Part shown: positions 1 through 45,791 of the stretch, in pieces
How the letters are laid out: each line of letters starts with the position of its first letter
Numbering within the stretch: the first letter of the stretch is position 1
From: Candidatus Nomurabacteria bacterium
Lineage (GTDB): Bacteria; Patescibacteriota; Minisyncoccia; Phycocordibacterales; UBA9973
Assembly: GCA_026395995.1 (NCBI GenBank)
Contig: JAPLXQ010000003.1
Location: forward strand, 1 to 45,791
DNA length: 45,791 nucleotides
Direction of reading: 5' to 3'
Notes under the pieces: model-generated
Database searches by the model: none
Seen by the model: only the letters and a program-made list of their open reading frames with translations
Told to the model about the DNA's origin: nothing
Position numbers and translations under genes: made by a program

Positions 1-90
1 TGCTACTTTTCGAGTCGACCAACCTCTCCTTACAAGGTCACTAGCATCCCTTCTAATTCTTGGCATGTTTTTGTTTGTTGTGTATGACAT
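1..90 (-). CDS. IS transposase, N-terminal fragment (runs off left edge)
   Basis: Thirty codons are visible, starting at the ATG at 90 and running leftwards out of the window. The readable protein has the segment MPRIRRDASDLVRRGWSTRK, a basic helix-turn-helix start of the kind seen in IS481/IS3-type (DDE) transposases; the family call is from memory of that motif. An identical start sits at 45710-45791 in the opposite orientation. A TAATAT box lies 7 nt before the ATG, so expression may be leaderless. The catalytic part is outside the window, so the family cannot be proven here. Confidence 0.6.
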   Translation of the reverse strand, partial: MSYTTNKNMPRIRRDASDLVRRGWSTRKVA

Positions 91-141
91 ATTTTTAATA
101 TTAAACCCTTAGGTGATTCCAAGCTATTGAACCATTACGAA
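9..141 (-). mobile_element. Insertion sequence end, left copy
   Basis: This 133-bp stretch is the exact reverse complement of 45659-45791 (position i pairs with 45800-i). It contains the upstream region and first codons of the transposase, so it is the 5' end of one IS copy. Identity stops at 141. Beyond three mismatches (142-144) there is a further 6-nt match, TTTGAC at 145-150, which may be a conserved terminal base set or chance. The other IS end and any target duplication are outside the window. Confidence 0.75.
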
Positions 142-231
142 TTGTTTGACAATGTATTTATATGTTCTTTTTTAGAATACTAAATATCTATATTTATGTA
201 AATAAATATATGTAACTACAAAGGATATTTC

Positions 232-252
232 CACGGAGGCATTGCCTCCGTG
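232..252. repeat. REP-like hairpin, left of the Y1 transposase
   Basis: Perfect 9-bp stem CACGGAGGC/GCCTCCGTG with a 3-nt loop. The same stem, extended by one base pair, recurs at 904-926 right after the transposase stop codon. A pair of near-identical GC-rich hairpins bracketing a Y1 transposase is the usual arrangement of REP elements and their RAYT enzyme. Confidence 0.8.
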
Positions 253-263
253 TATGACTATGA

Positions 264-269
264 TATAAT
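264..269 (+). promoter_or_regulatory. -10 box of the Y1 transposase
   Basis: Perfect TATAAT, with 6 nt between it and the ATG at 276. Transcription should start at or next to the A of the start codon, giving a leaderless mRNA. It lies only 11 nt after the left REP hairpin. Confidence 0.6.
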
Positions 270-275
270 TTTATT

Positions 276-902
276 ATGGCACTAAGAAAAGAAACTTTTG
301 CAACTGGTGAATTCTACCACTTGTATAATAGAGGGAACGATAAAAAAATAATCTTTAAAGATAAGAAAGATTATGAACACTTTTTGTTTTTAATGTATGT
401 ATGCAATACAGAAAAAAGTATCGAGTTACGTTATATTAGCAAGAGTTTTAATCGTGGAGAAACTCTCGTAGACATAGGCGCATATTGTTTAATGCCGAAT
501 CATTTCCATATATTAATTCATGAAAAAATTGAAGGTGGTATTTCAAAATATATGCATAAATTACTAACAGCTTACACTATGTATTTTAACAAAAGATATG
601 AACGTACTGGTAAACTTTATGAGGGAGTTTTTAAATCAAAATATGTAAATAGTGATAAATATTTAAAATATTTATATTCATACATACATTTAAATCCAGC
701 AAAACTAATAGACATAAATTGGAAAGAGAACAAAGGTAGAGATCTCAAAAAACTATTAGAATATATTTTTTCTTATAATTATTCAAGTTTAAAAGAATAC
801 ATAGACCAAAATTTTAAAATTACAAACTCAATAGCATTCCCAAATTACTTCAACAAACCTAATGATCATAAAAATGAACTATTTGAATGGTTAAATTTCT
901 AA
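276..902 (+). CDS. REP-associated tyrosine (Y1/HUH) transposase
   Basis: This 208-residue protein matches the TnpA-REP/RAYT class of single-strand DNA transposases, which nick and rejoin hairpin ends through a tyrosine. The HUH motif is visible as NHFHILIH (histidines about 76 and 78), and the catalytic tyrosine is most likely in YLYSYIHLNP (about 132-141). The N-terminus TGEFYHLYNRGNDKK is typical of the family. Length is in the normal range and I see no frameshift, so the gene looks intact. Hairpins at 232-252 and 904-926 frame it and the right one begins 1 nt after the stop. The hairpin sequence differs from the CTCCCC-type palindromes scattered through the window, so it is not shown that this enzyme moves those. 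Confidence 0.88.
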   Translation: MALRKETFATGEFYHLYNRGNDKKIIFKDKKDYEHFLFLMYVCNTEKSIELRYISKSFNRGETLVDIGAYCLMPNHFHILIHEKIEGGISKYMHKLLTAYTMYFNKRYERTGKLYEGVFKSKYVNSDKYLKYLYSYIHLNPAKLIDINWKENKGRDLKKLLEYIFSYNYSSLKEYIDQNFKITNSIAFPNYFNKPNDHKNELFEWLNF

Positions 903-903
903 T

Positions 904-926
904 ACACGGAGGCGATGCCTCCGTGT
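904..926. repeat. REP-like hairpin, right of the Y1 transposase
   Basis: Perfect 10-bp stem ACACGGAGGC/GCCTCCGTGT with loop GAT. It is the partner of 232-252 with the same stem core and a different loop, and starts one base after the transposase stop codon. Confidence 0.8.
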
Positions 927-964
927 AAACCATGTGTATTTGTTGATAAAAATAATTGACTTGA

Positions 965-3810: not shown

Positions 3811-3877
3811 ATAAAGGTATCAAGGCTCAAAAAATTAGGTATTATTAGTGATAAGTTTTATAATATATTCATATAAA

Positions 3878-4720
3878 ATGCCAAAAGAAAAAATTACAAC
3901 ATCTAATACAGCAGACACTACCGAAGCCCAAATAGACCCACTTGAATTACTCAAAAACAAATGGGGTGCTAATAATTCAAATTCCAACAAAAATAAACAA
4001 AACAGTCAAAAACTAGCAAAATTTGACAAAGTTGACAACAGTCTGCCTAAAGTTATCCCTAGAAAAATCCAAAGAAAGATAGAGACTATAGAAGTTCCAG
4101 AATCTTTAACTAAAGAAAAATTAGTAAATTTGGGATACCCAAAATATCTACTAGACAATCTTTCTGATGAAGAAAAGAAAGATTTAGCTTCAAAAAACAT
4201 AAAATTTGAGGTTTTTATGACTAATCTAAAGAAAAACTTTATCAAGATACAGAGTAAAGAAGGAAAGAAGTCTCTAAAAAATAAACATCAAAAGATTGTA
4301 GGTGCAATAGAAAGAATAAAAGTTTTTGAAGAAAAAAAGGAGGCGGGGAAAATAATGTCCAATGATGAAATAGCTGGAAGACTAATCGGATCTCTTTTTC
4401 CAAAACAAGAATTGATAAAACAATTACCAGATGAAGACATTGAAGAATGGAGAAAGTACTATCAAGAACAATTAAAAGATGAAAGTTTAAGTGACGAGAT
4501 GAAGGAAAGATATTTAAAAAAATTAAAAACAATCCGAGAGTACAAAGAATTTATTGATGAAGTAGAAGTTACTAAAAAAATTATTATCAAAAAAGAAGGA
4601 GAGGAAGACGAAGAGGAAATATTAGAAATGCTACTTAAAAAAGTCGAGGCTAAAAAAAGAGAGGAAAGGGAGAAAAGAAGAGAGGCTGGTTTATTAAAAG
4701 ATTTAAAACCTAAAAAATAA
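3878..4720 (+). CDS. Unknown charged, coiled-coil-prone protein
   Basis: 280 residues, unrecognised. The reading frame opens at 3848, but the start MPKEKITTSN at 3878 is preferred because the extra upstream residues are translated leader. No signal peptide or membrane segment is seen. The protein is rich in Lys and Glu. Its middle part (IPRKIQRKIETIEVPESL..LGYPKYLLDNLSDEEKKDL) looks folded, and residues about 200-280 form a highly charged helical tail suited to a coiled coil. The stop is followed after 1 nt by the ATG of the DHH-motif giant, so the two are co-transcribed from the promoter at 3782 and may act together. The role is not known. Confidence 0.8.
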   Translation: MPKEKITTSNTADTTEAQIDPLELLKNKWGANNSNSNKNKQNSQKLAKFDKVDNSLPKVIPRKIQRKIETIEVPESLTKEKLVNLGYPKYLLDNLSDEEKKDLASKNIKFEVFMTNLKKNFIKIQSKEGKKSLKNKHQKIVGAIERIKVFEEKKEAGKIMSNDEIAGRLIGSLFPKQELIKQLPDEDIEEWRKYYQEQLKDESLSDEMKERYLKKLKTIREYKEFIDEVEVTKKIIIKKEGEEDEEEILEMLLKKVEAKKREEREKRREAGLLKDLKPKK

Positions 4721-4721
4721 T

Positions 4722-7700
4722 ATGTCAGAACAACCACCAAAAGTTCGTACAATAGAAGAAATAAATACAGAAATAAAAACACTGCGTTTAAATCCTAAAA
4801 AACTAAAAATGGATGTTTTGGACCTACAATTACTCGCATTAGAGAGAGAACTCAAACAAGCTAAGAACTTGGAGCAGAGTAAGGTTAAAAAAGAAAAAGA
4901 AAACAAATCTGTAAACAAAAATTACACAATACAAAATTCTAAAGAAAAAGAAACTGAAATTTTACCAGGTCTAATGATTAATGGGGTAGTAATAGGACCA
5001 AACGATAAAATATTAGGCCCAAAAACTTTTAAACAAGGTAATACTTATTTTTCAATACCAGAATCAAAAATAATTTCAAAAAAGAAAAACAAAAAAGAAA
5101 AGAAACAAGTAAATAAAATTGTCACAGAAAAAGAATTGGAAAATCTGACAAAAGGACGAAGTGTGTGGTCTAACGACAGGACAAATGGTGGAAAATATAT
5201 TATAAATGAAACTCCAGAAACAAGTAAGGATAAAAAATACGTCTTTAAAAAAGAAAATGGTAGTGTCTTTAGAATTTCTAGTGATCAATTAAAGAAATTG
5301 GTAAAAAACGAATCAATTCAATTGACTTTAACTGAAGAAGAATATAAATCAAAATCTCCAGCTGTAAAAGCAGTAAATGCGCCAATAACTAAAAAAGCAA
5401 CAACCCAGGAAACAAAAGAAAATACAAATATACCATCTTTAATGATACAAGGAATGGAAATACTTCCTACTGATGAAATAATTGGCCCAAGAACTTTCAA
5501 AAGAGGTACTACTTATTTTTCAGTACCTGATACTCAGCCAGAATTAACAAAAGTTACAGCAATACAATCCACGCCAGCTACTCCCGCTACAAAAATAAAT
5601 AAAATTAAAACCCCAGAAGATGCAAAGAAAGAATATCGTGATTTTATAAACAAAGCAGCAAAAGTCATCAAGCAAAGAGGAATAGATAGAATAGTCATTC
5701 ATGGAGATGAATTTAAAGTAGATAAAAATCTACCAGAAGATAAAAAAAATAAATTAGAAGAGGAATGGGAAAATTTACGATATGAAACAAACGACTTCGA
5801 CCTAGACCTCGAAGGTTCTATGCTGTTTCTCAATAATATGGCTAGTGGAAACAAAAAGATTTTAAACGATAAATTATTTTTAGAAAAAATTTCTAAAGGA
5901 TCAGAAGGTTTAAAATATCCACTCCGTAATAAAGAAGTAATACTATATATAGACGTCGGGGGTAAAAACCCTGGAGTAGAGACAGAAGGAGGAGTGACAA
6001 AAATTTATGCTGATCATCATGGTACAGAAGGTGGCTACACTACTTCAGCTACACAAATAGTGCGAGATATAATGACAGCCGGAAAGTTTTCTCTCGGAGA
6101 CCCTAAGACAAAAGAATATTTAAATAAAACAGCCAGCTTTATAGCAAAGTTTGATAATTTGGCATACCTTGATGATAAAAAAGATTCGAGAGATCCAAAG
6201 AGTGAGAGATTGGTAGATGAAAAATATTTACGAAATACTTTCCCACGAAGTCTATATTCACTTGCAAAGTTTTTACCATTTGAAACTGTTTTAGAAATTC
6301 TCGGCAAGAATGAGAAATATTTTAAAGACGGAAAACCTCGCGACTGGACAAATACTTTTACACGCGAAGAAATAGAAAATGGAGAAATTGGAAAAATGGA
6401 AGTAGATTACCGAGGTAAAAAAATTACTGTTAAAGAATTAGTTGAAAGAAATATTAAAGATTTAAATTATGCAATAAACAATACAAACATAGCCCTAAGG
6501 TATCAAGGAAATAATACAGACTCTGTTCTCGGCAAGACTGTCTTTCATGCTTTTACAAAAGATACAGACGGTAAATCTAATACCATTCCAAACCATCTAG
6601 CTTATATCACTGCTCGCGCATTAGGTAATGATGCTTTTGTTTCTTACAATCCAGAAAGTGGGGCGATATTTATAAACTCAGATGGAAAAGTAGATTTAAT
6701 GCCTATTTGGGAAAAATTGAATGCAATAATTCCTGGCTATCCAAAACCAATTCGTAACCAAATGATGTTTGCTCCAAAAGACCCTGAAATGAATAAAAAA
6801 ATGAAAGATATTTCACAAGAAAAAATTCTTGAGATTTTAGGAATGGGTGAAAATAAAAATACTGCTCCAGTAGCAATAAAAACAACTATAGAAAAAGATG
6901 TGGATAAAACAGCTGACATAAAAAAAGACATAACTAAAAAAATTGACGATAAGGATAAGAATAACAAAAAAGAACAACCTAAAGGACCGACAGCTGAACA
7001 AATAGCTCAAATAGAGAGAGAGAGAATGACACGCTTGCAAGCTGTGGCTACTGCTCGTGAGACTTTGTTTCAAATTAAAAATGAACCAGAAAGTGCTTGG
7101 GGTAAATTTAAAGGTTGGTTTAATGCTAAGAGCACAGAAAAGCAAACAAAAATAACTAATCAAGAAAAAATTTATCATGATGCCAAAAAAGCATATATAG
7201 AAATGCTACCAAAGGGAACACCTGAAGCTAATCTTTTTATTCTTTCTGAAGCAGAAATTGTTAGAAACCATAAAACAGAAAATCTTCCACTTTCTGAAAA
7301 AATTAAAAATGGAATTTCAAAAGGGGTAAAATATTGGGAAGAAATCGGTACTAATCCAGAAGACAGTAAGACAAAACAATGGGCTAAAAAAATAGCTAAA
7401 AGTCTTATTGCTGTCGGTATCATTGGTGGAGCTTCAGCTGCGGCAGTCAGCAGTCTGGCTGCGATCGGAGTAGGTACTGCTAGTGCACTGTCTGCTGGAG
7501 CAGGTTCATATCTCGGTAGAAAAATGCTAATGACTGTCGGAATGAGTTCGGTAATGACCATCATGCCACCTGGAGTAAAATCATTCTTATCAATGGCCTT
7601 ACCAATGATGAGTGTCGCAGGTGGAGCAGGATATCTAGCATCAAAAGGAGCACAGTTTGCAATGAATAAATGGTTTGGTTTTAGTGAAGAATCTATAAAA

Positions 7701-8948
7701 TCAAAACTAGATACAGAAATTAATAAATTAAAAAATCCAGACCTAAACAGCAACGAATCTTTGGATGACAAAATAAAAAGAATTGAAAAAGAATATGCAA
7801 CGATAGAAAAATCTGCAAAACAAAAAAGATTTGGTAGAAGATTGATGAGTGGAGTTGCAGCTCTAGGTACCGGTATTGCTGTTTTGGAATATGGAGGATA
7901 TAAAATGGACGAACATAATGCCGAACTAGCTCACGCACAACAAATAAAAAATGAAGAGCTACGACATTTCAATCCTAATACAAAAGAAGTCGATCCTGCT
8001 TTTGCTGGTAGAGAATATCCACAAGGAGAACATGGAATAAATACCAAAGTAGAATTCAGTTCTCGTGGTGCTATAGCGACACTAGATGATTTGAAAGGAG
8101 AGCTGACAAAACAATATCATGGAGATTTTTCTCATGTACCACAAAGTGTGCAAGATTTTATGCACACCAGCTCTACAGAAGAAGCAATGAAACTCGGAAT
8201 GTTTCATCCTAATGATCCTACTGGAAATGAAAGTATGATGATCATGCGAGGCTCTACTATTAGCTTTGATGAACATGGAAATTTGTCATATCATGACATT
8301 CAAAAAAATATTGATCACACGTTAATAGAAGGGGATAAAAATGCGATAGAACAATATAAAGGAAACATGTTTGATTCAGATCAAAACTCTGAAACTGAAA
8401 ATCAAACAGAAAACGCCAATTCACCAGAAGAACAAAATTTTCAAAATGAAACAGTGGGTGAAAACAATCAAGAAAATAATAATGAAGTCACGACAGACAA
8501 TCCAAATATGACTTATGACGAAGAAGCAGAAAAAGAAAATCCTATTAATCCTGAACATTCTGACAACACAAACAATGAAACACAATCAGAAGAAATAACA
8601 CCGACAGAAGACACTGCACATTTTGGACTAACTGAAGACCAACTAAAAGAAACACAAGTAGTCCATGATGAAAATGTTGATAAATTATTTGATGATACTA
8701 ACAATTGGAATGAAATAAAAAACCAACCAGCTGATGTTTATATAAATGCACCAATCGATGGTGTAACTCCTGAATATCAAAATTTCGTAGAATACTTACA
8801 CAATTTATCAGAAAAAAGTAAATTAGAACCTTATCTTGGTACAATGTTTGAAAGAGGAGAAACGACTGATACTTATATTCAACGAGCCTTAGAAAAATTA
8901 GCCTCTGAAGATAGATTAGAAGAAGTGACATTAACACAACATTATTAA
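4722..8948 (+). CDS. 1408-residue DHH-motif protein with central hydrophobic region
   Basis: Large multi-part protein of unknown role. Residues about 80-115 and 236-270 carry two copies of one module (compare GPNDKILGPKTFKQGNTYFS with PTDEIIGPRTFKRGTTYFS). Residues about 400-680 look like a DHH-type phosphoesterase: ILYIDVGG, then ADHHGTEGG with D431-H432-H433, then a possible substrate-binding half with GNDAFVSYNPESGAIFINSDG. About 890-985 is glycine/alanine-rich and hydrophobic (several membrane passes). About 1020-1050 is a helical charged stretch, and about 1220-1330 is an acidic Asn/Glu/Thr-rich linker before a small C-terminal domain. DHH proteins are usually 300-600 residues and soluble (RecJ, nano-RNase, cyclic-di-AMP phosphodiesterase), so this fusion is unusual. 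The DHH call rests on motif reading only. Confidence 0.75.
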   Translation: MSEQPPKVRTIEEINTEIKTLRLNPKKLKMDVLDLQLLALERELKQAKNLEQSKVKKEKENKSVNKNYTIQNSKEKETEILPGLMINGVVIGPNDKILGPKTFKQGNTYFSIPESKIISKKKNKKEKKQVNKIVTEKELENLTKGRSVWSNDRTNGGKYIINETPETSKDKKYVFKKENGSVFRISSDQLKKLVKNESIQLTLTEEEYKSKSPAVKAVNAPITKKATTQETKENTNIPSLMIQGMEILPTDEIIGPRTFKRGTTYFSVPDTQPELTKVTAIQSTPATPATKINKIKTPEDAKKEYRDFINKAAKVIKQRGIDRIVIHGDEFKVDKNLPEDKKNKLEEEWENLRYETNDFDLDLEGSMLFLNNMASGNKKILNDKLFLEKISKGSEGLKYPLRNKEVILYIDVGGKNPGVETEGGVTKIYADHHGTEGGYTTSATQIVRDIMTAGKFSLGDPKTKEYLNKTASFIAKFDNLAYLDDKKDSRDPKSERLVDEKYLRNTFPRSLYSLAKFLPFETVLEILGKNEKYFKDGKPRDWTNTFTREEIENGEIGKMEVDYRGKKITVKELVERNIKDLNYAINNTNIALRYQGNNTDSVLGKTVFHAFTKDTDGKSNTIPNHLAYITARALGNDAFVSYNPESGAIFINSDGKVDLMPIWEKLNAIIPGYPKPIRNQMMFAPKDPEMNKKMKDISQEKILEILGMGENKNTAPVAIKTTIEKDVDKTADIKKDITKKIDDKDKNNKKEQPKGPTAEQIAQIERERMTRLQAVATARETLFQIKNEPESAWGKFKGWFNAKSTEKQTKITNQEKIYHDAKKAYIEMLPKGTPEANLFILSEAEIVRNHKTENLPLSEKIKNGISKGVKYWEEIGTNPEDSKTKQWAKKIAKSLIAVGIIGGASAAAVSSLAAIGVGTASALSAGAGSYLGRKMLMTVGMSSVMTIMPPGVKSFLSMALPMMSVAGGAGYLASKGAQFAMNKWFGFSEESIKSKLDTEINKLKNPDLNSNESLDDKIKRIEKEYATIEKSAKQKRFGRRLMSGVAALGTGIAVLEYGGYKMDEHNAELAHAQQIKNEELRHFNPNTKEVDPAFAGREYPQGEHGINTKVEFSSRGAIATLDDLKGELTKQYHGDFSHVPQSVQDFMHTSSTEEAMKLGMFHPNDPTGNESMMIMRGSTISFDEHGNLSYHDIQKNIDHTLIEGDKNAIEQYKGNMFDSDQNSETENQTENANSPEEQNFQNETVGENNQENNNEVTTDNPNMTYDEEAEKENPINPEHSDNTNNETQSEEITPTEDTAHFGLTEDQLKETQVVHDENVDKLFDDTNNWNEIKNQPADVYINAPIDGVTPEYQNFVEYLHNLSEKSKLEPYLGTMFERGETTDTYIQRALEKLASEDRLEEVTLTQHY

Positions 8949-8967: not shown

Positions 8968-9273
8968 ATGGCAACAATAAAACAAACCTTAATCGAATTG
9001 TTTGAACTAGATAAAATGTCTCCTGAGAAGGCGACAGAGACAGCTGAGAGATTGGCAAAATTAGTCATGCAAGCAGTTTTGACTCGTGTCTTACCAATGC
9101 TTTCAGAAGAAGATTTACAAAAATATGAAGACATTATAGATACAAACCAAAGCCCTGAAATTTTATTTGATTTTCTAAATTCCAAAGTAGTAAATTTTCA
9201 AGAAATTCTAACTGAAGAGACAGAAAGTCTGCACCGAGAGCTCTCGGGAGAAATGGAATCTTTGATTAGTTAA
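8968..9273 (+). CDS. Small helical protein, unknown
   Basis: 101 residues, acidic and almost entirely helix-forming. It has the pattern LFELDKMSPEKATETAERL followed by VLPMLSEEDLQKYEDII, reminiscent of small conserved CPR proteins (DUF5663-like; tentative). It lies 19 nt after the DHH-motif gene with no promoter seen, so it is the last gene of that operon, and a terminator follows at 9292-9327. No Shine-Dalgarno site precedes it. Confidence 0.75.
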   Translation: MATIKQTLIELFELDKMSPEKATETAERLAKLVMQAVLTRVLPMLSEEDLQKYEDIIDTNQSPEILFDFLNSKVVNFQEILTEETESLHRELSGEMESLIS

Positions 9274-9291: not shown

Positions 9292-9327
9292 AAAAAACAT
9301 TTTGAAGTAAAATTCAGAATGTTTTTT
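9292..9327 (+). terminator. Terminator after the 3878-9273 operon
   Basis: A 15-bp stem with one G-U pair (A6-CATTTTGAA against TTCAGAATG-T6), loop GTAAAA, and a T-tract. The in-frame ATG at 9319 lies inside this stem, which argues against using it as the helicase start. Confidence 0.75.
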
Positions 9328-9336
9328 ATTTTGTGC

Positions 9337-9342
9337 TATATT
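9337..9342 (+). promoter_or_regulatory. -10 box of the UvrD/PcrA gene
   Basis: TATATT, 6 nt before the ATG at 9349, the same geometry as the other leaderless candidates. It follows directly on the terminator stem. Confidence 0.45.
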
Positions 9343-9348
9343 AAAATG

Positions 9349-11373
9349 ATGGAACATTTGAAAGGACTCAATGATGCTCAAAAAGAAGCGGCTCTGCACA
9401 CTAGTGGGCCGTTGTTAATCGTCGCTGGTGCTGGAGCAGGGAAGACTAAAACTATCACTCATAGGATTGTTAATCTAATAAAACAAGGTGTTTCACCAGA
9501 AAAAATCTTAGCGGTAACATTCACAAACAAATCTGCTAAAGAAATGCGTGAACGCATCATAAATGAAATAGAAAAAAATGCGAAAGGACAAAATACTGTG
9601 CCTTTTGTGAGTACTTTTCATTCACTTGGAGTTCATATCATTAAAGAAAATTCTAGGTTAATCGGTGTCACTAGACATTTCACTATTCTCGACGAGAGTG
9701 ATTCACTTTCGATAATCAAAGAATCTCTGAAAGAAAACGATTTAGATCCAAAACAATATGAGCCAAAGAAAATAAAAGGTATGATCAGTCGAGAAAAAGG
9801 AAAGTTTACCAAGATGGAAGATTATTTTGAAAGTGCGACTGACTATTTACCCAGAGTCGTCGCTCGTGTCTGGAAAAGCTATGAGACAAAAAAAGCCAAA
9901 GAAAATGCTCTAGACTTTGATGATTTACTTTTAAAGGCCACAACATTATTAAAGGAAAATTTAGAAGTACGAAAAATGTATCAAGATCGTTGGAGCCATA
10001 TACATATCGATGAGTACCAGGACACAAATGAAGCTCAATACATAATGAGTAAGCTACTTTCTGAAAAGCATAAAAATATTTGTGTCGTCGGAGATGCTGA
10101 CCAAAATATTTATTCTTGGCGTGGAGCAAATTTAAAAAACATCTTATCTTTTGAAAAAGATTATCCAGATGCAAAAATTGTATTACTGGAAGAAAATTAT
10201 CGTTCTACAAAAAATATTTTGGAGGCTGCGAATACTATTATTAAAAAAAATAAATATCGTCCTGATAAAAATTTATTCACCTCAAATGAAATTGGTGAAA
10301 AAATTTCATTACATGAAGCCCTAGAAGAAACCGAAGAGGCGGATTTCATTGCAACAAAAATTTTAGAGATTGTAGATAGTTCCGATAGTAATAAAATTTT
10401 TGATCCTGAGGCCTTCTTTGGGCGCAATTCTGGGGACAAAGTGGGACCCTCGGATACAAAAATTTCATCACTATCTCCACATTTTTCTGACGTAGCAATT
10501 CTTTACCGTGCAAATTTTCAATCACGCGTACTAGAAGAAGCAATGCTTCGTTATAATATTCCATATCAAGTTCTAGGAATAAAATTTTTTGAAAGAAAAG
10601 AAATTAAAGACACTCTTTCATATTTACGAGCAGCACTGAATCCAGAAAGTTTATCTGACATAAAAAGAATTATAAACTTCCCTGCACGTGGAATAGGGAA
10701 GGTAACTCTCACAAAAATATTTGCAAAGGATACAACAGAGCTACCAATAAAAATGCAAATAAAAATAAAAAACTTTTATGAATTATTGGAAGAAATAAAA
10801 GAAAATATTTCACACAATACAGCTTCAGAAGTTATAAAATTTGTAATTAAAAAAACAGGTATAGAAGAAGAATTAAAAAATGGCGGTGAAGAAGAAATGG
10901 AAAGATTGGCAAACATCAAAGAGCTAGCGACACTCGCACTAAAATACGACAATTTGGAAAATGGTCTTGGTGTCGAAAAACTTATCGAGGATGCATCCCT
11001 CGCTTCCGACCAAGATTCAATAATGATTACAGATGAAAAACCTGAAAAAATAAATGGTATTAAGATGATGACTGTTCATGCTTCAAAAGGACTAGAGTTT
11101 AAATATGTTTTTGTCACAGGATTAGAAGAAGGACTTTTTCCAAACCAAAGAGCCGGTGAAAGTAAATCAGCAGAAGATAGTGAAGAAGAACGTAGACTTT
11201 TCTATGTAGCCATCACTCGTGCTCGTGAAAAATTATTTTTATCCTTTGCAAACTTCCGAACAATTTTTGGTTCAAGGCAAATAAATTCACCATCGCAATT
11301 CATTTCTGACATACCTAGAGATATAATAGAAAGGAGTGATGAGAATCCAAATGTAAAAACAATTTATATATAA
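9349..11373 (+). CDS. UvrD/PcrA/Rep-family superfamily 1 DNA helicase
   Basis: 674 residues. This ATP-driven 3'-5' helicase type acts in nucleotide excision repair, mismatch repair and fork restart. Visible motifs in order are the Q-motif GLNDAQKEAA, Walker A VAGAGAGKTKT (about 24-34), motif Ia AVTFTNKSAKEM, Walker B IDEYQDTNEAQ (about 220), motif III GDADQNIYSWRGA, motif IV LEENYRSTKNIL, motif V TVHASKGLEFKYVFV (about 574) and motif VI YVAITRAREKL (about 614). The frame extends upstream to 9319, but that ATG lies in a terminator; 9346 is also possible, and 9349 is chosen for the 6-nt distance to the -10. PcrA, UvrD and Rep cannot be told apart here. Confidence 0.95.
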   Translation: MEHLKGLNDAQKEAALHTSGPLLIVAGAGAGKTKTITHRIVNLIKQGVSPEKILAVTFTNKSAKEMRERIINEIEKNAKGQNTVPFVSTFHSLGVHIIKENSRLIGVTRHFTILDESDSLSIIKESLKENDLDPKQYEPKKIKGMISREKGKFTKMEDYFESATDYLPRVVARVWKSYETKKAKENALDFDDLLLKATTLLKENLEVRKMYQDRWSHIHIDEYQDTNEAQYIMSKLLSEKHKNICVVGDADQNIYSWRGANLKNILSFEKDYPDAKIVLLEENYRSTKNILEAANTIIKKNKYRPDKNLFTSNEIGEKISLHEALEETEEADFIATKILEIVDSSDSNKIFDPEAFFGRNSGDKVGPSDTKISSLSPHFSDVAILYRANFQSRVLEEAMLRYNIPYQVLGIKFFERKEIKDTLSYLRAALNPESLSDIKRIINFPARGIGKVTLTKIFAKDTTELPIKMQIKIKNFYELLEEIKENISHNTASEVIKFVIKKTGIEEELKNGGEEEMERLANIKELATLALKYDNLENGLGVEKLIEDASLASDQDSIMITDEKPEKINGIKMMTVHASKGLEFKYVFVTGLEEGLFPNQRAGESKSAEDSEEERRLFYVAITRAREKLFLSFANFRTIFGSRQINSPSQFISDIPRDIIERSDENPNVKTIYI

Positions 11374-11417: not shown

Positions 11418-12215
11418 ATGAAAATACATAAAGCAAAAAAATCATTAGGTCAAAACTTTTTAAAATCAGTACCAGCACTGAACGCTATTGTGAATGCCGG
11501 AGAAGTAAAAGATACTGATACTATTTTAGAGATTGGTCCTGGAAAAGGAGCACTGACTGAAAAACTTTTAGAGAAAGCTGGCACAGTTATTGCTATTGAA
11601 AAAGACAAAGACCTACTAGAATTTTTGAAAGAAAAATTTAAAACAGAAATTGAAAATGAAAAATTAATTTTAATAAATGAAGATATTTTAGAGCACCCCC
11701 TCCCAACCTCCCCCTTGGCGAAGGGGGAGGGGAAATACAAGATTATCGCTAACATTCCATACAATATCACCGGAGCGATTTTGAAAAAATTTTTAACAGC
11801 CGAAAATCAACCAGAAAGAATGGTCTTAATGGTACAAAATGAAGTAGCAAAAAGAATCGTCGCTCGTGATGGGTCAGAAAGTATTTTATCAATTTCCGTG
11901 AAAGCTTATGGAAATCCAAAAATAATAATGAAAGTGCCAGCACGATATTTTTCACCAGCACCTAAGGTGGATTCTGCTATTATTGCAATTACAGATATAA
12001 ATAGGGATAATTTTAAAGATAAAAAACTAGAAGATATTTTTTGGACTTTAGTTAAGACTGGTTTTGCACACAAAAGAAAGATATTATTAAGTAACTTAAA
12101 AGAAATCGCTAGGCAAGACCTAACGATAATATTTAAATCTTTAAATATTTCAGAGAAAGTTCGAGCCGAAGAACTAGATCTAAAAGACTGGTTGGAAATT
12201 GCTAAAAAATTATAA
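11418..12215 (+). CDS. rsmA: 16S rRNA dimethyladenosine transferase RsmA/KsgA
   Basis: 265 residues. It dimethylates two adjacent adenines near the 3' end of 16S rRNA during 30S assembly, using S-adenosylmethionine. It starts with the family signature KSLGQNFLKS, followed by SAM motif I ILEIGPGKGALTEKLL (about 37-52), the acidic motif VIAIEKDKDL, and catalytic motif IV NIPYNITG (about 113-120). Between NEDILE and KYKIIANIPYN there are about 13 extra residues (HPLPTSPLAKGEG) encoded by a GC-rich palindrome at 11694-11738. Ordinary RsmA proteins have a short loop here, so this is an in-frame insertion before the motif IV strand. It is otherwise intact. Confidence 0.96.
   Translation: MKIHKAKKSLGQNFLKSVPALNAIVNAGEVKDTDTILEIGPGKGALTEKLLEKAGTVIAIEKDKDLLEFLKEKFKTEIENEKLILINEDILEHPLPTSPLAKGEGKYKIIANIPYNITGAILKKFLTAENQPERMVLMVQNEVAKRIVARDGSESILSISVKAYGNPKIIMKVPARYFSPAPKVDSAIIAITDINRDNFKDKKLEDIFWTLVKTGFAHKRKILLSNLKEIARQDLTIIFKSLNISEKVRAEELDLKDWLEIAKKL
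11694..11738. repeat. CTCCCC-type palindromic element inside rsmA
   Basis: Core CTCCCCCTT-GGCG-AAGGGGGAG with a C-rich 5' tail and the end GGGAAATAC. It is read in frame as HPLPTSPLAKGEGKY. The base composition stands out sharply from the AT-rich gene around it. Confidence 0.85.
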
Positions 12216-16385: not shown

Positions 16386-19300
16386 ATGAAAAAAAATATC
16401 TACAAAAATATAATAAAATTTCTTATTCTAGTTGTTTTTATAACACCAGTTTTTTCTAAATTTGCACATGCCACAAACCCACTAATAGTAACAACAGGAT
16501 CAGCAAGTCTTATTGGAGTATTTAGTGCAACATTGACTGGTACAGTTTTTAATCCTAATCCTGTTACAAACTATAATTCATGGTTTGAATATAGCCCAAA
16601 TCAAACATCTTTAAACAATGGTGGTGGTCAGTCTACATCACCATCTTATGGTACTCTTCAGCCTTACACATCTGCCACGTCCAGCATTGTAATTAATTTT
16701 ACAAATCTTTATTCTTCAAATCCAGTTACTTATTATTTTAGAATTTGTGAGACTGATATATCGGGAATTGTCTGTGGTTCCTCTAATAGTTTTACAACAC
16801 TTGCAAACACAACACCACCAGTCAACCAGACTAGTTCTACTGGTGTAATAGGTGCTGGTGTTGGTGGTGCAGCAAACAATACTTTTAGTACAGAAATTAC
16901 AAATGTCTTAACTTATAACGCAATAAATTTACACGACACTTCAGCAAAATTAACTGGTTCAGGAACTATATTAAATAGCCAAAATCATTATGCCTATTTT
17001 AGATATTCTAAAATTACTGACAATCCACCTATTTTTTGTAACGACATTTATGGATCAGCAATGAGATCAATAGCATCAACAAGCCCAAACACAAACGGTT
17101 CCTTTATTGGTAGTGGTAATTTTAGTGCTACAGTTCAAGGGCTTGAACCAGACACCAGTTATGCTTATTGTGCAGTAATTTCAAACAGTGCTACAAACCT
17201 AAATATGAATCAGCAATATTTATTACCTCCGACAGATATTCAATATGGAGGTGTAAAATATTTTACTACAAAATGTGGTACTACTTGTACGACAATTCTT
17301 ACAAAATCAGTTTCTGATGTTACACCGACTACGGCTTATTTAAATGGTCAGTTTAATTCTACAAAAACAGTAACGACATCATTTGAATACACCGTTGACC
17401 CAGCGACTCTTCCTCCTGTAAATGGACATCCGGCTACAGCCAATTGGCAAACAGTAAATATTGAAAACCACATTGTTCCACAACAAAATGGTTCCACTTC
17501 AGCCTCTGGTGGTCTAAAAAAACAATTAACAGGTTTAACTCCAAACACTTCTTATTTATTTAGAGCAGTAGCACAAACAGATTGGGGAGTACCTGGTTCA
17601 CCGGCAATTCAATCTTATTCTGGTGAAACACTTAGCTTTGTCACTCGTCCACCAGCATCGACACCTGAAGTACCGACAGACCCAGGAATCGGAACAGGAA
17701 ATCTTCCAGATATAATTCCCGGAGACTGGACCGACGGAGCAGGTGGTCCATGTTCATCATTAACCCTAAACAATATCTCAAATAGAACTGTTCGAGTGGG
17801 AAATAATCTTTCTTTATCAACACACTATTGTGGGGCTCAAGGAGAAGTAGTTACTTACGGAATAATTGACCAACCTGGTGGTTCATATTTTAACCCAGCA
17901 AATAGTTCTTTTACATGGAGACCGACTTTTACTCAAATTGGCCCACATATTGTAAAAATAAATGCTACGACCCCATCAGGAAATGACGCCGAAGAAATAT
18001 CATTTACTATCAATGTAATAGCTTCTAATACAAATTGTAACACTTTAACTATTGAACCAATTCCAGATCAAAATTATGATGTAGGTCAAACTGGTAATTT
18101 AAATGTTAATGTTTGTGGAAATAATGGGGAAGTTGTCACCTATGGAGCAGATGGTTTACCTGCAGGTGCTGGTATTAATCATGACAATGGATATTTTTCC
18201 TGGTTTCCTACAGAAGACCAAATAGGTCCACATGACATTATCTTTACAGCCAGTACCCCTAGTCAAAATGCAGTATCTGTTACAGTGCACTTTATTATTT
18301 CTGCATCAAATAATGCTCCATTAAATCCAAATGATCCAAACAATATTCACGGGAACTCTGTCTCTTGTCCAAATTTCAAAATAAACCCTATTTCAAATAA
18401 AAATGTTCAAGTTGGATCTCCTATTTCTTTTACTGTTCATACCTGTGGAAATCAAGGACAACCAGTGACTTATTCTATTACTTCTACATTAATGCCATCA
18501 AACGCAAGTATTGATCATGAAACTGGTATTTTTTCTTGGCATACAGGTCCGAATCAATCTGGTACTTATGAAATAACTGTTCATGCCGGTACTCCTATTG
18601 GTGCGATAGATTTAACTACAGGAAACCATGCGATAGTTAATGCGACACCAGTAACAGTACAGATAAAAGTAAATGCTTTACCTGTCGATTGTCCAACTCT
18701 AAAAATAAATCCTATATCAAACATTACTGCTTTTGTCGGCCAACCAGAAACTTTTTATGCGACAGTTTGTGGAGACCATGGCCAAACAGTCACTTATGGA
18801 GCAGATAGCTTACCAACAAATGCTGGCATTAATCCAGAAACTGGTTTTTTCTCTTGGACTCCAACAATTAACCAACTTGGTATAAACAATATAACCATTA
18901 TGGCAAATACAACAAGCCAAAGAACTGTTACTGATATTGTTCACATTAATGTGAAAAACATAAACAACAATCCTTTTAGTGGAAATGTGAATGGCAACAA
19001 TCCTTTTAGTAATGGAACAAGTAATGGTAGCAATCCTTTTGGAAATGGAACTTTTGGTAGTGGTATAGATAGTAATGGCAATAGTTCAAACGGAAGTGGT
19101 GGTAATAGTCCGACAGTTCTAGGATCTCTAAATAATCCTGCTCCGGCCTTGGGTTCAGCATTAGTTCCTCCATATAGTGACGTCGTAAGATATCACGAAG
19201 GAATAGAGCATGTCTTTACTAGACAAATAGTAGGGGATATATCTCTCGCAAGAATTTATGGATATCAAGATGGACAAAATTTACAAATTTTTGCCGGAAA

Positions 19301-19511
19301 CCTAGCTCACTCATTTGCTACAATGTTTGGATATTATCATGGTGGGGGAAGAGAAATACGAGTCATTACTCCAGACATCGCAGCCTATCAGCTCGGACTC
19401 AAAGATGGAATGCTAGCTGTTTATGAATATTATGATAATCACTTGACCGGTGTCGCTACTGCTACAGGAAGCTTGAAAGAAACTTTTGAATACGAATATT
19501 ATTTTCATTAA
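16386..19511 (+). CDS. Large Ig-like repeat surface protein (adhesin-like)
   Basis: 1041 residues with a signal peptide (about 8-29, IIKFLILVVFITPVFSKFAHA). Residues about 30-420 contain fibronectin-type-like beta domains (patterns such as LTGLTPNTSYLFRAVAQTD). Then come four repeats of about 95-110 residues starting near 454, 551, 660 and 768, each with C-x-x-L..I.PI.......VG........CG..G..VTYG and F.W.PT..Q.G, the layout of cadherin-like/He_PIG putative Ig domains with a conserved Cys pair. A low-complexity run built on NNPFSG/NGSNPFGNG follows (about 858-905). The C-terminal domain (VVRYHEGIEHVFTRQIVGD..) is separate. Likely surface-displayed and possibly an adhesin or sheath; no partner can be named. 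Confidence 0.85.
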   Translation: MKKNIYKNIIKFLILVVFITPVFSKFAHATNPLIVTTGSASLIGVFSATLTGTVFNPNPVTNYNSWFEYSPNQTSLNNGGGQSTSPSYGTLQPYTSATSSIVINFTNLYSSNPVTYYFRICETDISGIVCGSSNSFTTLANTTPPVNQTSSTGVIGAGVGGAANNTFSTEITNVLTYNAINLHDTSAKLTGSGTILNSQNHYAYFRYSKITDNPPIFCNDIYGSAMRSIASTSPNTNGSFIGSGNFSATVQGLEPDTSYAYCAVISNSATNLNMNQQYLLPPTDIQYGGVKYFTTKCGTTCTTILTKSVSDVTPTTAYLNGQFNSTKTVTTSFEYTVDPATLPPVNGHPATANWQTVNIENHIVPQQNGSTSASGGLKKQLTGLTPNTSYLFRAVAQTDWGVPGSPAIQSYSGETLSFVTRPPASTPEVPTDPGIGTGNLPDIIPGDWTDGAGGPCSSLTLNNISNRTVRVGNNLSLSTHYCGAQGEVVTYGIIDQPGGSYFNPANSSFTWRPTFTQIGPHIVKINATTPSGNDAEEISFTINVIASNTNCNTLTIEPIPDQNYDVGQTGNLNVNVCGNNGEVVTYGADGLPAGAGINHDNGYFSWFPTEDQIGPHDIIFTASTPSQNAVSVTVHFIISASNNAPLNPNDPNNIHGNSVSCPNFKINPISNKNVQVGSPISFTVHTCGNQGQPVTYSITSTLMPSNASIDHETGIFSWHTGPNQSGTYEITVHAGTPIGAIDLTTGNHAIVNATPVTVQIKVNALPVDCPTLKINPISNITAFVGQPETFYATVCGDHGQTVTYGADSLPTNAGINPETGFFSWTPTINQLGINNITIMANTTSQRTVTDIVHINVKNINNNPFSGNVNGNNPFSNGTSNGSNPFGNGTFGSGIDSNGNSSNGSGGNSPTVLGSLNNPAPALGSALVPPYSDVVRYHEGIEHVFTRQIVGDISLARIYGYQDGQNLQIFAGNLAHSFATMFGYYHGGGREIRVITPDIAAYQLGLKDGMLAVYEYYDNHLTGVATATGSLKETFEYEYYFH
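18961..19055 (+). repeat. Short tandem coding repeat (NPF/NG repeats)
   Basis: Three degenerate copies of a unit based on AACAATCCTTTTAGTGGAAA within the adhesin-like gene, giving the low-complexity NNPFSG..NNPFSNG..SNPFGNG linker. Such tracts can change length by slippage. Confidence 0.7.
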
Positions 19512-22703: not shown

Positions 22704-22806
22704 TTTTTCTCCCTCCTCTTCGCCAAGGGGAGGGCTGGGGTGGGGTGGGGTGTAAATTTAATCACCCCCTCTCATTCTCCCCCTTGGCGAAGAGGGAGAA
22801 GAAATA
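22704..22806. repeat. Two palindromic elements in opposite orientation (large cruciform)
   Basis: Copy one (about 22706-22751) has CTCCTCTTCGCCAAGGGGAG with a GGGGTGGGGTGGGG tail. Copy two (about 22762-22805) is inverted and reads CACCCCCT..CTCCCCCTTGGCGAAGAGG. Their outer arms (TTTCTCCCTC and GAGGGAGAAGAAA) are complementary, so the whole 103 bp can fold as one long stem with inner hairpins. It fills the gap before the PrgI-like gene and ends 17 nt before that gene's -10 box. Confidence 0.75.
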
Positions 22807-22823
22807 CAAAATTAAATTTGTGC

Positions 22824-31020: not shown

Positions 31021-31062
31021 AACACCCTCCCTAGCCCTCCCCTTAGCGAAGGGGAGGGGAAA
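31021..31062. repeat. CTCCCC-type palindromic element between yidC and yidD
   Basis: ACACCCTCCCTAGCCCTCCCCTTAGCGAAGGGGAGGGG. It abuts the stop codon of yidD (31063-31065) exactly. The core stem CCTCCCCTT..AAGGGGAGG is perfect, and the tail is the same C-rich tail as in the other copies. Confidence 0.85.
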
Positions 31063-31281
31063 TTAAATTAGTGGATCCATATGATTTTTCTGCCAAGGAT
31101 GACAACGTAGAATCCTTAAGACCGTTAGTCTTAAACCCTTAAGGGATCCATATTTTTCTATTGCTTGTTTACTATATTCTGAACATGTAGGATAAAAAAC
31201 GCAATTTCTTTTGTTTTTTAAAGGTGAAATTCTCTTTTGATAAAAATCAATTAATTTTATTAAGTATATTTTTAATTTCAT
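31063..31281 (-). CDS. yidD: Membrane protein insertion efficiency factor YidD
   Basis: 72 residues, the normal length. The family signature is clear: RISPLKNKRNCVFYPTCSEY, then QAIEKYGSLKGLRLTVLRIL and RCHPW. It is a small membrane-associated protein that helps YidC-dependent insertion. It overlaps the 3' end of rnpA by 35 nt, as is usual for this gene pair. Confidence 0.94.
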   Translation of the reverse strand: MKLKIYLIKLIDFYQKRISPLKNKRNCVFYPTCSEYSKQAIEKYGSLKGLRLTVLRILRCHPWQKNHMDPLI

Positions 31282-31669
31282 TTTCTAGATTTAAGATAGG
31301 ATTATAAAGCTTATTTTTCTTTTTTCCAAAGAATTCCATGCTTTTCTTACCAAAGACAAATACTCCAATCAGCCCCTCTCCTTTCCAGGAGAGGGTAGGG
31401 TGAGGTTCTTGGTGAGGTTCATTTTTTAATAACTTTCTTAAAACAGCATAACCACGACGACGTAGTAAATTCCTTCCAACAGCTCTTTTGCAAGCTGTTT
31501 TTGGGGCAGTAAAGGAAATACGGATTGAGTTCTCCCTCCCATTCGCTAAGGGGAGGGCTGGGGTGGGGTGCATGTATTTAAAAGATAAATTGGCAGAATT
31601 AACAAAACGGCCTTCTTTGAAGACCTTTTCGACCGTTTTACGGTCAGTTCTGTTTTTTTTAGGTAGCAT
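31247..31669 (-). CDS. rnpA: Ribonuclease P protein component
   Basis: 140 residues, slightly long for RnpA (about 110-125). The protein subunit of RNase P supports tRNA 5' maturation. Recognisable parts are LPKKNRTDRKTVEKVFKEGR, the core strand IRISFTAPK, and the signature ACKRAVGRNLLRRRGYAVLRK (the family's RNR-type motif). Two palindromic elements add residues: YMHPTPALPLANGREN (from 31531-31571) before the core strand and PHPTLSWKGEGL (from 31371-31407) after the RNR helix. Both are loop positions in the usual fold. Overlaps yidD by 35 nt and lies 14 nt after rpmH. Confidence 0.92.
   Translation of the reverse strand: MLPKKNRTDRKTVEKVFKEGRFVNSANLSFKYMHPTPALPLANGRENSIRISFTAPKTACKRAVGRNLLRRRGYAVLRKLLKNEPHQEPHPTLSWKGEGLIGVFVFGKKSMEFFGKKKNKLYNPILNLENEIKNILNKIN
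31371..31407. repeat. Palindromic element inside rnpA (3' copy)
   Basis: CCCCTCTCCTTTCCAGGAGAGG followed by GTAGGGTGAGG. The core stem CCTCTCCT..AGGAGAGG is nearly perfect. On the minus strand it is read as EPHPTLSWKGEGL. Confidence 0.8.
31531..31571. repeat. Palindromic element inside rnpA (5' copy)
   Basis: TCTCCCTCCCATTCGCTAAGGGGAGGG followed by CTGGGGTGGGGTG. The stem CTCCC..GGGAG is imperfect. On the minus strand it is read as HPTPALPLANGREN. Confidence 0.8.
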
Positions 31670-45593: not shown

Positions 45594-45658
45594 TGTCTTG
45601 TTATTTAAAAGATTTGTTTGTCTAAACAATATAAACTTTTTTAATTAAAGTCAAATTT

Positions 45659-45791
45659 TTCGTAATGGTTCAATAGCTTGGAATCACCTAAGGGTTTAAT
45701 ATTAAAAATATGTCATACACAACAAACAAAAACATGCCAAGAATTAGAAGGGATGCTAGTGACCTTGTAAGGAGAGGTTGGTCGACTCGAA
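45659..45791 (+). mobile_element. Insertion sequence end, right copy
   Basis: Exact reverse complement of 9-141. It includes the IS end and the first 27 codons of the transposase reading out of the window. Confidence 0.75.
45710..45791 (+). CDS. IS transposase, N-terminal fragment (runs off right edge)
   Basis: The readable start MSYTTNKNMPRIRRDASDLV continues to the window end. It is identical to the copy at 1-90, with the same TAATAT box upstream. The rest of the gene is outside the window. Confidence 0.6.
   Translation, partial: MSYTTNKNMPRIRRDASDLVRRGWSTR

What the first reader, a model, noticed from the sequence alone, without database searches (positions are those of the whole stretch)
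4722..8948. Giant DHH-motif membrane protein with duplicated module
A DHH-type phosphoesterase-like core (ILYIDVGG, ADHHGTEGG, GNDAFVSYNP) is embedded in a 1408-residue protein that has a hydrophobic region, an acidic tail and two copies of an N-terminal module, in an operon with two unknown proteins. DHH enzymes act on nucleotides, nano-RNA or cyclic dinucleotides. A membrane-tethered form could be a signalling or nucleic-acid salvage enzyme.
Basis: partly seen in the sequence, partly recalled or inferred. Interest (0 to 1): 0.7.

Follow-up and report, generated by a model that had tools for sequence, protein, structure and literature searches.

The report
Membrane-anchored DHH enzyme of tiny bacteria
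In the ultra-small Patescibacteria a little-recognised branch of the DHH phosphate-ester-cutting enzymes is repeatedly encoded beside, or fused into, a giant membrane protein, which points to phosphate-ester (probably nucleotide) chemistry done at the cell membrane, with the substrate still unknown.

Summary
ORF 4722-8948 (+, 1408 aa) of a Candidatus Nomurabacteria genome contains a DHH-type domain (residues ~297-712) that Pfam does not recognise. An AlphaFold model (pLDDT 81.6, pTM 0.82) matches DHH proteins in all 50 best VIA-align rows (Z up to 11.8). The five predicted metal ligands (D360, D362, D411, H433, D478) are kept in 28-31 of 31 relatives found across the phylum. The canonical DHHA1 substrate motifs (GGGH, RxRxR) are missing; a conserved Arg (R678) lies near. 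The C-terminal ~600 residues are a different, genus-wide protein: about five putative membrane helices, an acidic tail that should lie outside, and a conserved helical end domain, between a LysM-M23 peptidase gene and uvrD. Only 7 of 80 genus genomes carry the DHH part, usually as a separate gene of the same locus; here and in a sister genome it is fused. Fusions also occur elsewhere in the phylum, some with reversed domain order, and the 101-aa neighbour gene is a recurrent partner. Best reading: a membrane-anchored, active DHH phosphoesterase acting on small linear nucleotides. Cyclic-dinucleotide signalling is disfavoured (DAC in 0 of 11 genomes, GGDEF in 1 of 16). The "duplicated module" is a young 36-aa repeat.

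The parts
4722..8948 (+). 1408-aa fusion protein: variable N-term, DHH phosphoesterase domain, charged linker, membrane region, acidic tail, C-terminal helical domain
4962..5069 (+). first copy of the 36-aa repeat (residues 81-116)
5430..5537 (+). second copy of the 36-aa repeat (residues 237-272), absent from the sister genome
   Evidence: L031 translation
5610..6857 (+). DHH domain plus C-terminal associated domain (residues 297-712)
   Evidence: AF2 model pLDDT 81.6 / pTM 0.82; Foldseek and VIA-align
5799..5807 (+). motif I, D360 and D362 (predicted metal ligands)
5952..5954 (+). motif II, D411 (IDVGG)
6012..6020 (+). motif III, D431-H432-H433 (ADHHG)
6153..6155 (+). motif IV, D478 (FDNLAY)
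6753..6755 (+). R678, conserved Arg in the C-terminal associated domain, near where DHHA1 proteins have GGGH
   Evidence: 26 of the 28 rows with a residue there
7374..7925 (+). membrane region (residues 885-1068), about five putative helices (hydropathy and eye)
8067..8411 (+). region after the membrane helices (residues 1116-1230), at the position where other giants carry a module also found in the exported-type Ig protein 16386-19511; the window copy is itself too diverged to match that module
8412..8621 (+). acidic low-complexity linker (residues 1231-1300)
   Evidence: low pLDDT
8622..8945 (+). C-terminal helical domain (residues 1301-1408), confident model, conserved in the giants of the genus, highly diverged patch against the sister genome
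8968..9273 (+). 101-aa conserved partner protein (weak DUF5663 match, below cut-off)
3848..4720 (+). Lys-rich 280-290 aa protein (ATG at 3878), not conserved beyond the sister genome
2587..3714 (-). divergent LysM + M23 peptidase; left border of the locus
9319..11373 (+). UvrD/PcrA-type helicase; right border of the locus, followed by ksgA and type IV secretion-like genes

Best explanation
The gene encodes a membrane-anchored phosphoesterase. A DHH catalytic domain of a divergent subfamily, found here only in the window's phylum (nothing in the phage, plasmid or viral collections; other phyla not searched), is fused to the locus's resident giant membrane protein. Shown by computation: DHH fold; all motif I-IV metal ligands conserved across the phylum; a membrane region followed by a strongly acidic tail; repeated linkage or fusion of the DHH domain to this class of membrane protein, in both domain orders. 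Inferred: the enzyme is active and two-metal dependent; it sits on the cytoplasmic face, with the acidic tail and end domain outside the membrane; it cleaves small linear phosphodiesters (short oligonucleotides or nucleoside phosphates) near the membrane, either to recycle nucleic-acid fragments or to answer a signal from the outer part. Because GGGH and RxRxR are missing, its substrate probably differs from those of NrnA and RecJ, both of which the genome also encodes.
For: Fold: (all 50 listed VIA-align entries are DHH superfamily, Z 7.8-11.8, model range about 7-417; the first eight Foldseek rows are RecJ or archaeal RecJ-type DNA replication proteins). Catalytic residues. Purifying selection against the sister genome, dN/dS 0.23 over the DHH region. 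Linkage: fused in the window, L031, L072, L073 and L076; same-strand neighbour or same locus in L039, L040, L042, L043/L069, L071, L127, L138, L128; membrane parts of L071, L076 and L127 homologous to the window's (E 1e-6 to 3e-5). The small partner lies next to the giant in L071, L072, L073, L076 and L127. Topology: charge asymmetry, and a tail module of related giants shared with an exported-type Ig protein. Separate RecJ and NrnA-like genes in the same genome. Meaning of the motifs: PMC8268124 and PMC9757072.
Against: No member of this subfamily reaches Pfam's DHH cut-off; the best is 20.5 bits against 28.1, and profile-profile matches to RecJ/NrnA are weak, so membership rests on the fold model plus the motifs. 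Several DHH loci (for example L074, L129, L130, L132) show no membrane partner, so the tether is not essential to the enzyme. The membrane part gave a low-confidence model (pLDDT 48) and helices were counted by hydropathy only. No substrate evidence exists.
Confidence: 0.6

Rival explanations
1. Membrane-bound cyclic-dinucleotide phosphodiesterase, a GdpP-like signalling enzyme.
For: GdpP is the known membrane-anchored DHH/DHHA1 enzyme (PMC9757072), and this locus sits beside cell-wall enzymes (M23 here; amidase in L050 and a weak YkuD match in L039).
Against: DAC cyclase absent from 11 of 11 genomes carrying the domain, with 11 of 14 control genomes positive; GGDEF absent from 15 of 16; no PAS or GGDEF domain in the protein; GGGH motif missing.
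Confidence: 0.1
2. Salvage enzyme: a membrane-placed nanoRNase-like exonuclease that finishes degradation of imported or shed nucleic-acid fragments, complementing RecJ and NrnA. (A sub-case of the best explanation.)
For: DHH enzymes act mostly on short oligonucleotides (PMC9757072); the nearest predicted folds are RecJ and NrnA; uvrD and secretion-like genes adjoin. Patescibacteria are generally poor in nucleotide synthesis (own knowledge, not tested here).
Against: The genome already has RecJ and an NrnA-like protein; the gene is sporadic (7 of 80 genus genomes), so it is not a core salvage function.
Confidence: 0.35
3. Non-catalytic scaffold or sensor: the DHH fold binds a nucleotide ligand and regulates the membrane protein, as Cdc45 uses the fold without catalysis.
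For: Cdc45 is among the structural matches; the genus-wide core of the locus is the membrane protein, not the DHH domain.
Against: Metal ligands conserved in 28-31 of 31 members over the phylum, which an inactive fold would not require.
Confidence: 0.12
4. An effector or inhibitor domain loaded onto a variable envelope protein (polymorphic N-termini at a fixed C-terminal carrier), used in contact with other cells.
For: Variable N-termini and variable gene content on a conserved C-terminal carrier at one chromosomal spot; mosaic divergence in the C-terminal domain.
Against: No known toxin domain in the other N-termini, no PADLOC match for the DHH proteins; the DHH metal ligands are strongly conserved, also in stand-alone members.
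Confidence: 0.08

Closest known systems
NrnA / pApase (DHH-DHHA1 phosphoesterases)
   Same: DHH catalytic fold, motif I-IV metal ligands, second domain after a helical linker
   Different: GGGH and RxRxR motifs absent; conserved Arg in 'PGxx..(V/I)R' instead; a variable insertion (about 10-30 residues) between the first strand and the motif I DxD; often fused to or neighbouring a giant membrane protein
RecJ exonuclease
   Same: best Foldseek matches; DHH core
   Different: no RecJ accessory domain recognised; a separate recJ exists in the genome
GdpP, membrane-anchored c-di-AMP phosphodiesterase
   Same: DHH-type enzyme tied to the membrane
   Different: no PAS or GGDEF domain; DHH is N-terminal to the membrane helices; hosts lack DAC
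DUF5663 (PF18908) small protein
   Same: 101-aa neighbour gives a weak match (E 0.0035, below cut-off)
   Different: function unknown; recurrent partner of the giant membrane proteins rather than of the DHH domain itself

Membership tests
DHH phosphoesterase superfamily | motifs I-IV with metal ligands (DxD, D, DHH, D) | tested here: met
   conserved in 28-31 of 31 relatives
DHH phosphoesterase superfamily | DHH alpha/beta fold | tested here: met
   predicted model; no experimental structure
DHH phosphoesterase superfamily | profile match to PF01368 at the curated cut-off (a detection criterion rather than a structural one) | tested here: inconclusive
   window copy has no match; best relative L039 E 0.0044, 17.7 bits (20.5) against 28.1
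DHH phosphoesterase superfamily | metal-dependent phosphoester hydrolysis | not testable with these tools
   needs a biochemical assay
DHHA1 subfamily (NrnA, RecJ, GdpP) | GGGH (motif VII) and RxRxR (motif VI) substrate-binding motifs | tested here: not met
   alignments have neither; no PF02272 match
DHHA1 subfamily (NrnA, RecJ, GdpP) | C-terminal domain fold | tested here: inconclusive
   VIA-align ranges span the C-terminal domain (to residue ~416 of the model) of NrnA and RecJ at rmsd 5-6
GdpP | membrane helices + PAS + degenerate GGDEF + DHH/DHHA1 | tested here: not met
   no PAS or GGDEF match; domain order differs
GdpP | c-di-AMP present in the cell (DAC cyclase encoded) | tested here: not met
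   PF02457 0 of 11 genomes, control positive
LysM domain (considered for the module after the helices) | homology to LysM | tested here: inconclusive
   hhalign of the shared tail module against the locus's own LysM repeats gave no alignment

The most novel reading that the evidence does not exclude
A previously undescribed transenvelope signalling enzyme of Patescibacteria: an outside-facing tail senses the wall or a host cell and controls a cytoplasmic DHH phosphoesterase acting on a messenger nucleotide that is not a classical cyclic dinucleotide.
Probability: 0.13. Interest if true: 0.78.

Novelty: new variant of a known kind. Interest (0 to 1): 0.46.

Why it matters
It identifies a DHH enzyme subfamily that Pfam and NCBIfam do not recognise, present sporadically over the Patescibacteria and repeatedly tied to giant membrane proteins with a small conserved partner. 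These bacteria have very small genomes and (own knowledge) depend on partners, so a membrane-placed phosphoesterase bears on how they obtain nucleotides or sense their surroundings. The compact 340-370 aa stand-alone members (L129, L130, L132) give a practical handle for biochemistry.

Tried and rejected
Radical SAM match to the window protein (E 0.024): covers residues 306-362, seen in no relative, below cut-off; rejected as chance. MjaI restriction endonuclease match of 3878-4717 (E 0.003, below cut-off, Lys-rich sequence) not credited. PADLOC gave nothing for the DHH proteins; the weak PDC-M36B match of the 101-aa protein (14.8 bits) not credited. Viral contigs, phages and plasmids: no relatives at that sensitivity. 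Fold search of the membrane half: model too uncertain and no useful match, so nothing can be said of its fold. LysM identity of the tail module was suspected from sequence patterns but not supported. Recent transfer of the whole locus between sister genomes was considered: the locus is ~98% identical while secretion genes are ~70%, but other regions are 87-98%, so a general mosaic fits as well. DHH in L130 and L135 lies near the pbp/ruvC (and in L135 dnaN) cluster; only two loci, taken as coincidence. No papers on DHH enzymes in Patescibacteria or on DUF5663 in the held library.

Full report
What is there. The window is contig C10 of a 761-kb genome; a 92%-identical homologue lies in a Candidatus Nomurabacteria genome (L031). 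ORF 4722-8948 encodes 1408 residues. Pfam and NCBIfam recognise nothing credible in it.

The DHH domain. The region 297-712 has matches in 7 of 80 genus genomes, the own genome included, and at E <= 0.001 in 16 of 383 class-level and 18 of 379 phylum-level genomes with the wider profile (more than half of the phylum-level matches are partial, weak ones). Alignment of 31 members shows that the invariant positions are those of a DHH active site: D360/D362, D411, D431-H432-H433, D478. The AlphaFold2 model of 293-712 is good (pLDDT 81.6, pTM 0.82). Foldseek's first eight rows are RecJ or RecJ-type structures (E 0.0035 at best, probability up to 0.97). All 50 entries listed by VIA-align are DHH-superfamily proteins (RecJ, NrnA/Pde2, PAP phosphatase, Cdc45), Z 7.8-11.8; the DHH core of 5ghs aligns over 136 residues at 3.0 A. 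By sequence alone the link is faint: one relative hits PF01368 at E 0.0044, and the profile hits PDB 6mtz at E 0.0016 over the DHH-motif segment. It is a divergent member of the superfamily by fold and catalytic motifs.

What differs. Published work assigns motifs I-IV to metal binding, and GGGH (motif VII) with RxRxR (motif VI) to substrate binding in the DHHA1 subfamily (PMC8268124, PMC9757072). Neither substrate motif is present here; an Arg (R678) is conserved in 26 of the 28 rows that have a residue there. The same genome has a RecJ and an NrnA-like protein, so this is a third DHH protein, probably with a different substrate.

The membrane half is another protein. Residues 796-1408 are homologous to a large protein encoded at the same place in nearly all fetched genus loci where the gene is covered: between a divergent LysM-M23 peptidase gene and uvrD-ksgA plus type IV secretion-like genes. 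It has Gly/Ala-rich hydrophobic segments, an acidic tail, and a C-terminal helical domain modelled with confidence and conserved throughout. Charges fit a cytoplasmic N-terminal part and an outer tail (N-terminal part net positive; residues 1069-1408 about -47). In nine other giants a module after the helices is also the C-terminus of the Ig-repeat protein 16386-19511 (E down to 1e-37). That protein begins with a signal-like hydrophobic segment (sequence), so the module is probably outside the membrane. The window's own copy is too diverged to be recognised there.

Linkage. The DHH domain is fused to a giant with membrane helices in the window and L031 (DHH first), L076 (DHH first, another family of the phylum), and L072 and L073 (DHH after the helices). 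It is a neighbouring or same-locus gene in L039, L040, L042, L043/L069, L071, L127, L128 and L138; in L128 the giant is cut by the contig end, and in L138 its homology to the window's is weak. The tree puts the window fusion inside a well-supported clade (98/99) whose other members have separate genes in the same locus, so the fusion is derived; the fusion label needs at least two changes on starred branches. The 101-aa gene 8968-9273 has homologues next to the giant in many genus loci and in L071, L072, L073, L076 and L127. The upstream gene 3848-4720 is found only in the sister genome. Several DHH loci have no membrane partner (L074, L129, L130, L132), so the association is frequent, not obligatory.

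The duplicated module. Residues 81-116 and 237-272 are 56% identical and match as DNA (117 nt, 74%). The sister genome has one copy. It is a local, young duplication (or a copy lost in the sister) in a variable linker. Other divergent patches between the sisters lie in the upstream gene, in linkers, and in the C-terminal domain (69-83% against ~98% around it).

How it may work. Shown by computation: fold, conserved catalytic ligands, membrane segments, recurrent linkage. Inferred: two-metal hydrolysis of a small phosphodiester on the cytoplasmic face of the membrane. Cyclic-dinucleotide turnover is unlikely, since DAC is absent from 11 of 11 genomes and GGDEF from 15 of 16, with working controls. 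Salvage of short oligonucleotides or nucleoside phosphates is the least demanding guess; control by the outer part of the giant is an open, more interesting possibility. The locus elsewhere carries wall enzymes (Amidase_2 in L050; a weak L,D-transpeptidase match in L039) and the M23 peptidase, so an envelope role for the giant is plausible.

Verdict. It is a new variant of a known kind: a divergent DHH phosphoesterase subfamily, here fused to a genus-wide giant membrane protein. The substrate is unknown.

Noticed in passing
window 11694-11745: A dispersed GC-rich palindromic repeat (also at 22763-22814 and 31022-31073) lies in frame inside ksgA and is read as PLPTSPLAKGEGKY; KsgA length varies (257-363 aa) among relatives, which suggests in-frame repeat insertions like those of Rickettsia.
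   Followed up: partly
window 228-929: ORF 276-902 looks like a REP-associated tyrosine (Y1) transposase (MPNHFHILI by eye) and is flanked by near-identical palindromes 228-255 and 902-929; a 47%-identical gene sits nearby in the sister genome, on the opposite strand.
   Followed up: partly
window 9-150 and 45650-45791: The two contig ends are a 142-nt inverted repeat (98% complementary), so the assembly probably breaks at a dispersed repeat.
   Followed up: no
window 31374-31571: Intergenic repeats near dnaA match many places in the sister genome, with ten or more short hits.
   Followed up: no
window 16386-19511: Putative exported protein with Ig-like (He_PIG) repeats whose last ~100 residues are a module shared with giant membrane proteins of other genomes.
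   Followed up: partly
window 8622-8945: The C-terminal domain is a sharply bounded patch of high divergence against the sister genome (dS about 0.68 against about 0.12 in the rest of the gene), which suggests local recombination.
   Followed up: partly
L137:5695-14565: A 2957-aa open frame in another family of the class carries a PP2C-type phosphatase domain (residues ~700-1000) and a DHH domain with a degraded motif III (QDH in place of DHH) at 1342-1713.
   Followed up: no
L050:12735-14822 and L039:5978-7129: The variable locus of other Nomurabacteria carries peptidoglycan-type enzymes: an Amidase_2 (E 9e-17) and a weak YkuD L,D-transpeptidase match.
   Followed up: no
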